Virus record (IMG/VR): IMGVR_UViG_3300049215_000306
Location: 1-20,774 of that record
Reading direction: 5' to 3' (one strand)
Length of the DNA: 20,774 nucleotides
Source: a virus
Shown here: in pieces, positions 7,725-20,774 of the stretch
Layout: each line of letters opens with the position of its first letter
Numbering within the stretch: position 1 is the first letter of the stretch
Program-made: the position numbers and the translations under genes
The notes under the pieces: model-generated
The model's database searches: none
What the model saw: the letters and a program-made list of their open reading frames with translations, nothing else
What the model was told of the DNA's origin: nothing

Positions 7725-8513
7725 ATGCGTTTCAATACTCGAAAAATGGTTGCGATTGCCGCGGTTGTGGCGGCGACGGCGTTCGTATGCTGGCCGGTCC
7801 CGAAGCCGCCGAAGCCGTCAGCGTTCCCGATCGCGCAGTCGGTCGACCTGACGCCGCGGACGAGTTTCTTCGACAAGGTCCGTGGGATTCTGCACGCGCA
7901 GGGTTATTCCAACGCGAACCCGTACAACTACTGGGTACCGCCAGGCGCGTGTCAGGGCAGCACGGCCGGCACCCTGGGCGGCACGAACGGTCTGACGACG
8001 GCGGGCGCGTCGCTCACGGCAGTCAGCCAGGTCTCGACGACAGCCGCAGGCGGTCCGAACACCCATACGTTCGTGTGCAATATCACGCCGCCGAGCGTTG
8101 TGGTCACGTCCGGCACGGGTCTGCAGATCATCAGCGCCGACTTTATGTATGGCGTGCAGACGACGACGCTCGGCACGCAGGCCTGTGTGCCTGCGTCCGG
8201 TACATGGAACGGCGCGACGGTCTTCTCAACGATCACGTATCCGACGCCAGGCGCCGGCGAAACGCCGTCGACGGTTACGCCCGTGCGGGCGGATTCAGGA
8301 ACACAGGTCCAGTTGCCGGTGTGCGCGTCGGCGAACATCGCAACGACGACCGCGGGGGCCTTCGTGAGCCAGCGGTTCACGCCGGCGACCGGCACGTTGC
8401 CGTTCGCGACTGACCTGAAACAGTTACTCTTGACCGTGGCGCTGTTGAATACGACGACCTCGGCGACCATCACGAACACACCGGGCGTTCTGGTTCGATA
8501 TCAGAGCCAGTAG
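7725..8513 (+). CDS. Structural-region protein with N-terminal hydrophobic/signal-like segment
   Basis: This 262-residue protein begins with AGGGAG eight bases before ATG 7725. The first 22 residues (MRFNTRKMVAIAAVVAATAF) have a basic n-region followed by a hydrophobic stretch, then a Cys-Trp-Pro-Val and a Pro/Lys-rich segment. This looks like a signal anchor or signal peptide, without a good cleavage site that I can point to. The remainder is Thr/Gly/Ser/Val-rich and beta-prone, with several cysteines (for example ACQGS, FVCN, ACVPAS, VCAS), consistent with an extracellular or virion beta-domain. It lies between head and tail-connector genes, so a virion location is possible. An export signal on a virion gene is odd. 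No family is recognised. Confidence 0.65.
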   Translation: MRFNTRKMVAIAAVVAATAFVCWPVPKPPKPSAFPIAQSVDLTPRTSFFDKVRGILHAQGYSNANPYNYWVPPGACQGSTAGTLGGTNGLTTAGASLTAVSQVSTTAAGGPNTHTFVCNITPPSVVVTSGTGLQIISADFMYGVQTTTLGTQACVPASGTWNGATVFSTITYPTPGAGETPSTVTPVRADSGTQVQLPVCASANIATTTAGAFVSQRFTPATGTLPFATDLKQLLLTVALLNTTTSATITNTPGVLVRYQSQ

Positions 8514-17175: not shown

Positions 17176-17670
17176 ATGTCGAACACGTTCCTGCATCCGG
17201 TCCAGTCGAACCCGACGACGCAGTTTATCGAAGCGTTGGCGGCAGCGGGGTCGACGTTCACGCCGCCGTTTGTCGGCTCGGCGCTGTATAACCTGCCGGG
17301 CTTACCGCCCGTGAACTCTCGGCGGTACCTGATTCGGGCGATCGAATATCTGTGCGTGCAGGACGTGGGCCTTGAGTTCGATTTCTGGAACTCGGCGTCG
17401 GGCCTGACGAACGCCATCGCGACCGACGCGTTCATCTCACGGTTCCAATTCGGGGCCGTCAACGGCGCGCAATTCAACGGCGCGGGGCTCTTTCGGTTCT
17501 ATGTCGATGGGCTCGCGATTCCGTATTTCGATGCCGACTCCGTCCTGAGTACGACCGTCGTGCCGACGCTGCACGTCGCCGTCCAGAACGTCGACACGGT
17601 CGCCAAGAGCGCCGGCGCACCGGGCGCGGTGAATGCGACCTTCTGGCTCGAGCCGATGCAGGCGTGGTAA
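17176..17670 (+). CDS. Small structural protein of tail region, unknown
   Basis: This 164-residue protein has AGGAG (17165-17169) overlapping the previous stop, a strong site. The sequence is beta-prone with aromatic strands: RYLIRAIEYLCVQDVGLEFD then FWNS, and later GAGLFRFYVDGLAIPYFD and HVAVQNVDTV. No motif is recognised. Its place between the nozzle-like protein and the signal-peptide proteins suggests a tail component. Confidence 0.6.
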   Translation: MSNTFLHPVQSNPTTQFIEALAAAGSTFTPPFVGSALYNLPGLPPVNSRRYLIRAIEYLCVQDVGLEFDFWNSASGLTNAIATDAFISRFQFGAVNGAQFNGAGLFRFYVDGLAIPYFDADSVLSTTVVPTLHVAVQNVDTVAKSAGAPGAVNATFWLEPMQAW

Positions 17671-17674
17671 GCCG

Positions 17675-18640
17675 GTGACGAAGAAGCGTTTCGCCCTGGC
17701 CGTCCTGATTGGGCTGTTGGTCGCGTCTGTCGACCTGCACGCGCAGACGTTCACCGCCCAGATTCAGCAGTTCTGGAACCTGCTTCGGACGGGGTCGCTG
17801 ACGTTCAACACCATCCAGAACTCGACGACGGCGACGACCTCGAGCAACCTGTTCAGCATCATCTACACGGGCACGACCAACCCGTCGAACTACTTCACGA
17901 ACGCCCTGTTCTCGTCGAACATCACGCAGGCGAACGGGCTCGCCTTCGCGACCGGCGTGAACAACTACTATCGGTACGCGCCGACTGACTCGGACGCGTC
18001 CGGCAGTTCGCGCATCGCCACGCTGTCGTACCTCGAGACGCGTGGGACACAGAACCTGTCGTCGTTCCTGTACAGCATCAAGGGCCGGGTGATTCACCTG
18101 GGGACCGGGTCCGTGGGCACGATTGTCGGCCTCGAGTCGTCGTCGTTCAACGGGCACGCAGGCGAGCAATTGACGACTGGCGGCAACGTCACGACGATGT
18201 ACGGGATCAGGTCCAGCCTGTTCGGACAGTCGTCGGCCTCGATGATTGGCACGCAGTACGGAATCGCCACGTTAGTCGAAAACGACTATGGGGCCGGAGT
18301 GACGACGGCGTACGGGAACCATGTCAGTTTCGTCGGTTCCGTCGTGCCGACGACAAGCTACGGGTTCTACGCGGGGACGATTCTCGGGACGGCGAAGTTC
18401 TCCTTCTTCTCGTCAGACGCCACCGCGCCGAGTTCGTTCGCGGGGTCGACAGTCACGCCCGTGGTGAACTACACGACGAAGATCAACGGCAGCGGATTCA
18501 CGTTCGCCAATATCGGGACCACGCTGACGGCGAACGGTGACATGGCGTACTGCACCGACTGCACGATTGCGAACCCGTGCGCTGCCGCAGGGACCGGGGC
18601 GCTGGCGAAGCGACTGAACGGAGTCAACGTATGCAACTGA
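17675..18640 (+). CDS. Fiber/appendage-like protein with signal peptide and conserved AQTFTAQIQQFWNLLRTGS block
   Basis: GTG at 17675 gives a 321-residue protein. A longer frame runs through the previous gene but lacks support. Residues 1-23 form a classical signal peptide: a KK-rich start, a hydrophobic core (FALAVLIGLLVASV) and an LHA-like cleavage site (cleavage expected after A23). Residues 23-41 (AQTFTAQIQQFWNLLRTGS) are identical to the same positions of the next protein. The middle is Ser/Thr/Gly-rich and repetitive (for example TTMYGIRSS, TQYGIAT), like a beta-solenoid fiber. The last 30 residues contain CTDC and two further Cys (YCTDCTIANPCAAAG...), which could bind a metal or form disulfides. 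The protein may be exported or may carry a signal-like anchor into the virion; the sequence alone does not decide this. Confidence 0.7.
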   Translation: MTKKRFALAVLIGLLVASVDLHAQTFTAQIQQFWNLLRTGSLTFNTIQNSTTATTSSNLFSIIYTGTTNPSNYFTNALFSSNITQANGLAFATGVNNYYRYAPTDSDASGSSRIATLSYLETRGTQNLSSFLYSIKGRVIHLGTGSVGTIVGLESSSFNGHAGEQLTTGGNVTTMYGIRSSLFGQSSASMIGTQYGIATLVENDYGAGVTTAYGNHVSFVGSVVPTTSYGFYAGTILGTAKFSFFSSDATAPSSFAGSTVTPVVNYTTKINGSGFTFANIGTTLTANGDMAYCTDCTIANPCAAAGTGALAKRLNGVNVCN

Positions 18641-19404
18641 GACGATGGCTCACCGCAGTCGTCGTGGCGCTGGTACTTGCGTCGACGCCTGTGTTCGCCC
18701 AGACGTTCACGGCGCAAATTCAGCAGTTCTGGAACCTGCTCCGTACCGGTTCGATTAAGTTTTCGAGCATCGCAGCGGGCAACGGTGTTCCTGACGCGGC
18801 GCATCCGATCAGTCTCGTCTATAGCTCTAACTCCGACATTCAGATGATTTTCCAAAATCTGAACACGGGGTCGTCGGCGGCTGCGGAGTTCGACATCAAG
18901 GCGGACACGTCGCGGCTGAATATCTCCGTCGAAGGCATCAATTCGTCGGACGCCTTCGGGGCACAGCGGGCACAAATCTACGCGGCGACAGGGGGCGGTG
19001 GCGCGACGTCGCACACGTCAGGGATCGACATCATTTCCTGCGAAGCGGCGACGCCGACGTTGTGTTTCACGCGGTTCGTCACCAACGGTCTGAATACGGG
19101 CGCCGTCCGCGCCACGATGGACGTCAACGGCCTGACGATGAACAACAGCGCGACGTCGCTGATTGGCTTCGCGGCCGGGGTGGGTGCCGCCGACGTGGGC
19201 CTCTCGCGCTCGGCCGCGGCGGCGATGGTCTTGGGCAATGGCACCGTGGGGGACTTCACGGGAACGTTGAAACTGGGCACGGTCAACGCCGTGACGGCGT
19301 ATCAGACGAACGGGACTCCTGGGGCAACCCATGCCGCGTGTTCCGTGTCGGTCACGGCGATCACGGTGACGAACGGACTCGTGACTGCTATTACCTGCAC
19401 GTAG
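18631..19404 (+). CDS. Second signal-peptide fiber/appendage-like protein (paralogous N-terminus)
   Basis: ATG 18631 overlaps the last 10 bases of the preceding gene. The product has 257 residues. Residues 1-23 are a signal peptide (MQLRRWLTAVVVALVLASTP, then VFA as the cleavage site). Residues 23-41 repeat AQTFTAQIQQFWNLLRTGS exactly as in the neighbouring protein; the 19 codons differ at 8 third positions and at none that change an amino acid, so this block is constrained. After it the sequences diverge. The body is Ser/Ala/Gly/Thr-rich and beta-like (for example ATGGGGATSHTSG), and the C-terminus has a short Val/Thr-rich strand set with Cys (HAACSVSVTAITVTNGLVTA). Export is likely from the signal; function is unknown. 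Confidence 0.7.
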   Translation: MQLRRWLTAVVVALVLASTPVFAQTFTAQIQQFWNLLRTGSIKFSSIAAGNGVPDAAHPISLVYSSNSDIQMIFQNLNTGSSAAAEFDIKADTSRLNISVEGINSSDAFGAQRAQIYAATGGGGATSHTSGIDIISCEAATPTLCFTRFVTNGLNTGAVRATMDVNGLTMNNSATSLIGFAAGVGAADVGLSRSAAAAMVLGNGTVGDFTGTLKLGTVNAVTAYQTNGTPGATHAACSVSVTAITVTNGLVTAITCT

Positions 19405-20527: not shown

Positions 20528-20774
20528 ATGGCTGCTGACGTCAAACTATTAGCGCGGGTTCGAAAGCTGCTGGAAGGGATCGACGCAGAAGTCGCGGGCG
20601 GGGATCCGCGCGATGTGTCGATGACGCAACAACTTGAGTTACTCGTCGCTCAAGGGACGGCGTCGTACTCAGAGACCGTTCGGATGGGCCGGGCCTTCTG
20701 GACGGGGACAACCGCAGCCGTCGCGGCCGTTGTGGCGATTCCGACGACCGCCGTGTTGTTGGCCCTGTACAACA
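20528..20774 (+). CDS. Partial virion-like protein, 3' end outside window
   Basis: ATG 20528 has AAGGA (20516-20520) ahead of it. 82 codons are visible before the window ends. The first 55 residues look helical (MAADVKLLARVRKLLEGIDA and TQQLELLVAQ). Then comes RMGRAFWTGTTAAVAAVVAI followed by PTTAVLLALYN. This Ala/Val/Thr/Pro stretch looks like a beta-domain segment common in phage structural proteins rather than a membrane helix, though a hydrophobic segment cannot be ruled out. Without the rest, no function can be assigned. Confidence 0.6.
   Translation, partial: MAADVKLLARVRKLLEGIDAEVAGGDPRDVSMTQQLELLVAQGTASYSETVRMGRAFWTGTTAAVAAVVAIPTTAVLLALYN

What the first reader, a model, noticed from the sequence alone, without database searches (positions are those of the whole stretch)
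17741..18753. Two adjacent signal-peptide proteins share an identical 19-residue block under strong constraint
Genes at 17675 and 18631 both begin with a Sec-type signal peptide, and both place AQTFTAQIQQFWNLLRTGS at residues 23-41, right at the predicted cleavage point. The codons of the block (17741-17797 and 18697-18753) differ at 8 third positions and 0 amino acids. Flanking sequence diverges completely. So this is not a recent duplication but a retained motif at what would be the mature N-terminus. Phage tail-fiber-like proteins normally lack export signals. The pair could be secreted (a decoy, matrix-acting or superinfection factor), or the hydrophobic segment plus motif could dock fibers to the virion through a common N-terminal tag. 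I do not know a described system with this exact block.
Basis: partly seen in the sequence, partly recalled or inferred. Interest (0 to 1): 0.72.

Follow-up and report, generated by a model that had tools for sequence, protein, structure and literature searches.

The report
Phage fibre proteins with export signals
A soil phage carries two neighbouring fibre-like proteins that both start with a secretion signal followed by the same 18 residues, and related fibres from other environmental phages show the same export signals plus paired cysteines, which suggests that some phages fold their tail fibres outside the bacterial cytoplasm.

Summary
The 19-residue block is identical in both proteins, with 8 synonymous and 0 amino-acid differences, and it begins at a canonical signal-peptidase site (…LHA|QTF, …VFA|QTF). 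The mature shared part is 18 residues, QTFTAQIQQFWNLLRTGS.

The window is an uncultured podovirus-like phage related to Tunturiibacter (Acidobacteriota) phages Tunturi_1/2. Its one close IMG/VR relative carries two block proteins in the same place. One of them joins the N-terminus of window protein 1 to the body of window protein 2, so signal plus block behaves as an interchangeable N-terminal module. The exact block was found nowhere else.

The wider pattern is new to me. Fibre-like proteins sharing protein 1's C-terminal four-cysteine cap carry Sec-like signals in 13 of 19 cases, against 10 of 100 control ORFs. Tunturi_1 has a run of signal-bearing fibre/spike genes. Siphovirus Tunturi_4 independently repeats the design: two tail proteins share a signal plus QTAAVK, again with synonymous divergence. 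Mature cysteine counts are even in 28 of 31 signal-bearing proteins, a signature of disulfide folding outside the cytoplasm.

Best reading: Sec-exported, disulfide-bonded tail fibres, with the block as a shared docking or trimerisation helix. Export is well supported by sequence. Attachment to the virion is inferred.

The parts
17675..18640 (+). P1: fibre-like protein, 321 aa, GTG start, signal peptide + block + unique body + C-terminal four-cysteine cap
   Evidence: ORF; start supported by the ATG start of the G001 orthologue; cap matches other phage fibre-like proteins
17675..17743 (+). P1 predicted Sec signal peptide, residues 1-23 (TKKR n-region, LAVLIGLLVA h-region, LHA|Q site)
   Evidence: heuristic; SignalP not available
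17744..17797 (+). mature shared block QTFTAQIQQFWNLLRTGS in P1
18503..18637 (+). C-terminal cap of P1 (residues 277-321; C.DCTI..PC...GTGA.AKRLNG.W/N-VCN)
   Evidence: 66.7% to MW202444 residues 1208-1253; same cap at the C-terminus of many otherwise different phage proteins
18631..19404 (+). P2: fibre-like protein, 257 aa, signal peptide + block + body related to G001 L003:2618-3928
   Evidence: 46% over about 175 residues to G001 protein 1
18631..18699 (+). P2 predicted Sec signal peptide, residues 1-23 (QLRR, LTAVVVALVLA, VFA|Q site)
   Evidence: heuristic
18700..18753 (+). mature shared block QTFTAQIQQFWNLLRTGS in P2
19192..19284 (+). P2 segment GNGTVGDFTGTLKL.. shared with a collagen-like tail fibre that has no signal peptide (L005) and with L004/L006
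   Evidence: 61-67%; L005 N-terminus MSLVRYEDIIYN
17176..17670 (+). conserved 164-aa tail-module gene just upstream; syntenic in G001, where block protein 1 also follows it
   Evidence: 71% identity
13510..17166 (+). large tail/structural protein (listed ORF start 13381; true start not settled), homologue of Tunturi_1 gp31 'virion structural protein'
   Evidence: 29.5% over 85% of the query

Best explanation
P1 and P2 are tail-fibre-like proteins of an (inferred) Acidobacteriota podovirus that are made as Sec pre-proteins. Signal peptidase cuts after A23, the chains are translocated, and they fold with disulfides in the periplasm. The shared mature N-terminus QTFTAQIQQFWNLLRTGS is a short amphipathic helix acting as a common adaptor, for trimerisation or for docking to one socket, behind which fibre bodies are exchanged by recombination. 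The fibres most likely meet and bind progeny tails when lysis opens the envelope. Shown by sequence: signal-peptide architecture, block identity under purifying selection, body swapping behind the module, fibre-type C-termini, even cysteine counts. Inferred: actual cleavage, periplasmic folding, helix/adaptor function, attachment to the virion.
For: (1) Block identity with 8/8 synonymous changes. (2) G001 has two SP+block proteins at the same locus; its protein 1 = SP+block of P1 (83% over 47 aa) joined to the body of P2 (46%). (3) Large tail protein and portal are homologous to Tunturi_1/2, where gp12, gp13, gp14 'tail spike' and gp16 are SP-like genes almost in a row; Tunturi_2 names gp13 tail fibre and gp14 pectin lyase. 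(4) Fibres with the P1 cap: SP-like N-terminus in 13/19 versus 10/100 control ORFs, p = 2e-7; T7 and lambda controls flag only Rz/Rz-like and Lom, no fibre. (5) Independent replicate: Tunturi_4 gp111 and gp113 share SP + QTAAVK, with 5 of 6 QTAAVK codons synonymously different. (6) Even mature cysteine counts in 28/31 SP proteins, 24/27 for cysteines outside the cap, 14/16 with one per record; cysteine-containing control genes 14/26 even; 1.89 versus 0.73 Cys per 100 aa. (7) Bodies and caps are shared with fibres that lack a signal (L005, L035, L047, L050).
Against: No SignalP run and no proteomics; signal calls rest on a home-made heuristic. Tailed virions assemble in the cytoplasm, so an exported fibre needs a post-lysis attachment step that nobody has shown for these phages. 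5-6 of 19 cap fibres lack a signal, so export is not obligatory for the fold. AlphaFold models of P1 and P2 are uninformative (pLDDT 32 and 35). The block's helical moment is only marginally above shuffles (6%). Tunturi_3 and the fibre genes checked in Tunturi_5 have no signals. Host phylum of the window phage is inferred from distant homologues.
Confidence: 0.5

Rival explanations
1. Exported but not virion-bound: the proteins are Sec-secreted fibre-like adhesins or glycan-acting proteins that stay in the periplasm, on the cell surface or in the matrix and alter it (superinfection, matrix remodelling, decoy). The block would be a common assembly or anchoring tag.
For: Signal peptides and even cysteine counts support export. 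Lambda encodes Lom, a signal-bearing outer-membrane protein, between its tail genes (PMC12309495). The tailspike-fold enzyme WceF is exported by a bacterium through a Tat signal (PMC7949094).
Against: Caps and bodies are shared with ordinary fibres lacking signals. The genes sit in the tail module. In Tunturi_1 the long fibre/spike-like genes gp12-gp14 all carry the signal, leaving few other candidates for receptor binding.
Confidence: 0.3
2. Uncleaved hydrophobic N-terminus: the 'signal peptide' is not used for export; the hydrophobic segment plus block is buried in the tail and docks the fibre to the virion.
For: Shared N-terminal modules with swapped bodies are how conventional fibres attach.
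Against: Canonical small-x-A|Q sites, n-region charge and h-region in many unrelated proteins; even cysteine counts, not expected for proteins folding in the reducing cytoplasm; the signal segment diverges in sequence between P1 and P2 while the block just after the cut does not.
Confidence: 0.13
3. Recent gene conversion between the two genes left an identical patch that means nothing functionally.
For: Neighbouring genes with one short similar patch.
Against: 8 of 8 differences are synonymous; the same block is kept in G001 in two genes, one of them with changes at only some positions.
Confidence: 0.05

Closest known systems
Fibre/spike genes gp12-gp16 of Tunturiibacter phages Tunturi_1/Tunturi_2 (PP887698, PP885685; PMC11924767)
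   Same: Related portal and large tail protein; several fibre/spike-like genes close together with Sec-like signals and mostly even cysteine counts
   Different: No QTFTAQIQQFWNLLRTGS block; module lies at a different place relative to the large tail protein; signal peptides are not mentioned in the paper
Tunturi_4 gp111/gp113 (PP885687)
   Same: Two tail proteins of one phage share a signal peptide plus an identical short mature N-terminus with synonymous codon divergence
   Different: Different block (QTAAVK...), siphovirus; GenBank start of gp111 omits the signal
MW202444 UOF76952.1 (uncultured phage, 1253 aa fibre-like)
   Same: Sec-like signal and the same C-terminal four-cysteine cap as P1
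   Different: Unrelated, much longer body; no block
Conventional tail fibres and tailspikes with a conserved N-terminal virion adaptor and exchangeable bodies (general knowledge)
   Same: Modular layout: constant N-terminus, variable body, conserved C-terminal piece
   Different: Conventional adaptors are not preceded by an export signal
Lambda Lom and Pantoea WceF
   Same: Lom: signal-bearing protein encoded among tail genes; WceF: exported tailspike-like trimer (PMC12309495, PMC7949094)
   Different: Lom is an outer-membrane beta-barrel and WceF is a Tat-exported chromosomal enzyme; no sequence relation tested

Membership tests
Tailed-phage tail fibre / receptor-binding protein | encoded in the tail module of a tailed phage | tested here: met
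   follows the large tail protein and a conserved 164-aa tail-module gene; capsid and portal genes upstream
Tailed-phage tail fibre / receptor-binding protein | shares fibre-type sequence modules with recognised fibres | tested here: met
   P2 GNGTVGDF segment in a collagen-like fibre; P1 cap at the C-terminus of many fibre/spike-like proteins
Tailed-phage tail fibre / receptor-binding protein | recognised by curated family models | tested here: not met
   no Pfam match for P1 or P2; one weak PHROGs match of unknown function for P1. Many fibres lack such models, so this feature is helpful rather than strictly defining.
Tailed-phage tail fibre / receptor-binding protein | present on the virion, binds a receptor | not testable with these tools
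   needs virion proteomics or binding assays
Tailed-phage tail fibre / receptor-binding protein | trimeric beta-structured fold | tested here: inconclusive
   AlphaFold monomers pLDDT 32 and 35
Sec-exported protein | positive n-region, hydrophobic core, small-x-A cleavage site | tested here: met
   both proteins; heuristic checked on T7 and lambda
Sec-exported protein | even cysteine count in the mature part (disulfide signature) | tested here: met
   4 and 4; class-wide 28/31 even; criterion as in PMC7678975
Sec-exported protein | demonstrated export and cleavage | not testable with these tools
   no experiment
Lom-like outer-membrane moron protein | sequence relation to Lom / OM beta-barrel | not tested
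   Pfam scan gave no match of any kind; no direct comparison made

The most novel reading that the evidence does not exclude
A set of tailed phages, notably of Acidobacteriota, send their receptor-binding fibres and spikes through the host Sec pathway, fold them with disulfides in the periplasm and fit them to the virion at or after lysis through a short mature N-terminal adaptor shared by several fibres of that phage. Virion assembly would then be split between cytoplasm and periplasm.
Probability: 0.4. Interest if true: 0.85.

Novelty: new variant of a known kind. Interest (0 to 1): 0.62.

Why it matters
Tailed phages are taught as assembling wholly in the cytoplasm. A recurring class of fibre genes with export signals and disulfide-type cysteine counts would mean that some phages finish their fibres in another compartment. 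It would also affect annotation: starts can be called too late and lose the signal, as in Tunturi_4 gp111. It would change how such fibres should be expressed for study. Cultured relatives exist (Tunturi_1, 2 and 4), so the claim can be tested directly.

Tried and rejected
Block or N-terminus searched in IMG/VR by profile, by two DNA patterns and with P2's alignment: only G001 (the other pattern hits are chance). Block in GTDB genomes: 72 pattern stretches, none confirmed. P2 against cultured phages: no match. Upstream 164-aa gene and large tail protein in IMG/VR: only G001. Fibre N-terminal domain of L050 against cultured phages: none. Cap in plasmids: none; cap in GenBank phages: only MW202444. 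Portal search in an Acidobacteriota MAG: empty, uninformative (searches failed on handle format). Structure prediction too poor for a fold search, so none was run. Pfam on the wider set gave nothing except a Big_7-like Ig domain just below its curated cut-off in an L033 signal-bearing gene and a weak DUF match. Literature searches found no description of Sec-exported tail fibres in the held library; most subscription papers and preprints are not held. Gene conversion considered and rejected (8/8 synonymous, kept in G001).

Full report
What is in the window. The record is a 20.8-kb uncultured virus contig. Portal, major head protein and the large tail protein identify it as a tailed phage; portal and tail protein are distant homologues (27-30%) of the podoviruses Tunturi_1 and Tunturi_2, which infect Tunturiibacter, an acidobacterium. 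The host of the window phage itself is inferred, not shown.

The observation. P1 (17675-18640) and P2 (18631-19404) both carry AQTFTAQIQQFWNLLRTGS at residues 23-41. Eight codons differ, all at third positions, none changing the residue; with about 26% of random changes synonymous, 8 of 8 has a probability near 2e-5. A23 is the -1 position of a canonical signal-peptidase site in both, so the mature shared block has 18 residues. Past residue 41, P1 shows no detectable similarity to P2.

The close relative. G001 (IMG/VR 3300047409_000695, 60 kb) has the same large tail protein and 164-aa gene, followed by a block protein, a signal-bearing 152-aa protein, and a second, more divergent block protein QSVVTAQINNFWNLLRFGS. 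Its first block protein has the P1 N-terminus (83% over 47 aa) on a P2-type body (46%). The signal plus block therefore travels as one N-terminal unit and bodies are exchanged behind it. No other occurrence was found in 2.9 million viral contigs or in GTDB genomes with the patterns used, so the exact block is confined to this small lineage as far as these pattern scans can see.

The wider class. P1 ends in a cap (YC.DCTIANPC...GTGALAKRLNG.WVCN in most members) that also ends MW202444's 1253-aa fibre-like protein, which has its own signal peptide. A DNA pattern for the cap gave 25 stretches in IMG/VR and a few in MAGs. Bodies differ; some share a pectate-lyase/tailspike-like GATGDGTTDD region with L035, which lacks a signal (the pectate-lyase label is from my own knowledge of that motif). 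Of 19 cap proteins with a resolvable N-terminus, 13 have a Sec-like signal by a fixed heuristic, against 10 of 100 other ORFs of the same loci (Fisher p 2e-7); L057 adds a fourteenth by eye, because its start lay outside the scanned range. On T7 and lambda late genes the heuristic flags only the Rz or Rz-like lysis proteins and Lom, not fibres.

Cultured phages. Tunturi_1 gp12, gp13, gp14 ('tail spike') and gp16 have such signals, in the structural region. Tunturi_3 has none among 26 structural genes and the Tunturi_5 fibre genes checked have none, so the trait follows phage lineage, not simply the host. In Tunturi_4, gp113 and gp114 have signals, and gp111 gains one if read from an upstream TTG at record position 80076; gp111 and gp113 share the signal and QTAAVK directly behind the cut, with 5 of 6 QTAAVK codons synonymously different. 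This is the window's pattern arrived at separately in a siphovirus with a different sequence.

Cysteine parity. Exported bacterial proteins prefer even cysteine counts (PMC7678975). After removal of the predicted signal, 25 of 28 signal-bearing phage proteins have an even count (p 1.4e-5); with Tunturi_4, 28 of 31 (p 2e-6). Counting only cysteines outside the cap gives 24 of 27; one protein per record gives 14 of 16 (p 0.002). Cysteine-containing non-signal genes of the window, G001 and Tunturi_1 are even in 14 of 26. Density is 1.89 against 0.73 per 100 residues. The proteins are not fully independent, some starts were chosen by the heuristic, and the one-per-record set was picked by hand, so the p-values are indicative. 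The measure is largely independent of the signal-peptide call and points the same way.

Mechanism. Most likely the fibres are exported, oxidised and folded in the periplasm, and the 18-residue mature N-terminus (hydrophobic at F26, I30, F33/W34, L37; AlphaFold gives helix here but at low confidence) is the shared adaptor. Binding to tails at lysis is the step with no direct evidence. It is chemically reasonable, since tailspikes of some podoviruses add to finished heads in vitro (P22; own knowledge). The rival that the proteins stay in the envelope or matrix is not excluded.

Novelty. Tail fibres with constant N-termini and variable bodies are well known. Tail fibres with Sec signals and disulfide-type cysteine counts were not found described in the held library, which lacks most subscription papers and preprints. 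I therefore call it a new variant of a known kind.

Noticed in passing
7725-8513 (+): A 262-aa gene behind the head genes also starts with a hydrophobic, signal- or anchor-like segment (MRFNTRKMVAIAAVVAATAFVCWPVPKPPKP), far from the fibre genes; by the heuristic its mature cysteine count is odd (5).
   Followed up: partly
L064:30076-33171 (Tunturi_4 record 80076-83171): GenBank start of Tunturi_4 gp111 'tail fiber protein' appears to be too late: an in-frame TTG upstream adds a signal peptide and the N-terminus shared with gp113.
   Followed up: yes
L068:33318-36736 (Tunturi_5): Four tandem genes of about 285 aa without signals share an N-terminal motif like FKAWAQ.ISNAF..FGW...DTGQV, a signal-less example of a shared fibre N-terminus.
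   Followed up: no
L053, cap protein: This signal-bearing tailspike-like protein has two copies of the cysteine cap, one near the N-terminus and one at the C-terminus, and 26 cysteines in the mature part.
   Followed up: partly
L003:3947-4405 (G001): A signal-bearing 152-aa protein (4 mature cysteines) sits between the two block proteins; L033:4292-4783 is a comparable small signal-bearing protein with a weak bacterial Ig-domain match.
   Followed up: partly
20528-20773 (+): The contig ends inside a small gene with a C-terminal hydrophobic stretch, possibly a holin or membrane anchor; further fibre genes may follow beyond the end.
   Followed up: no
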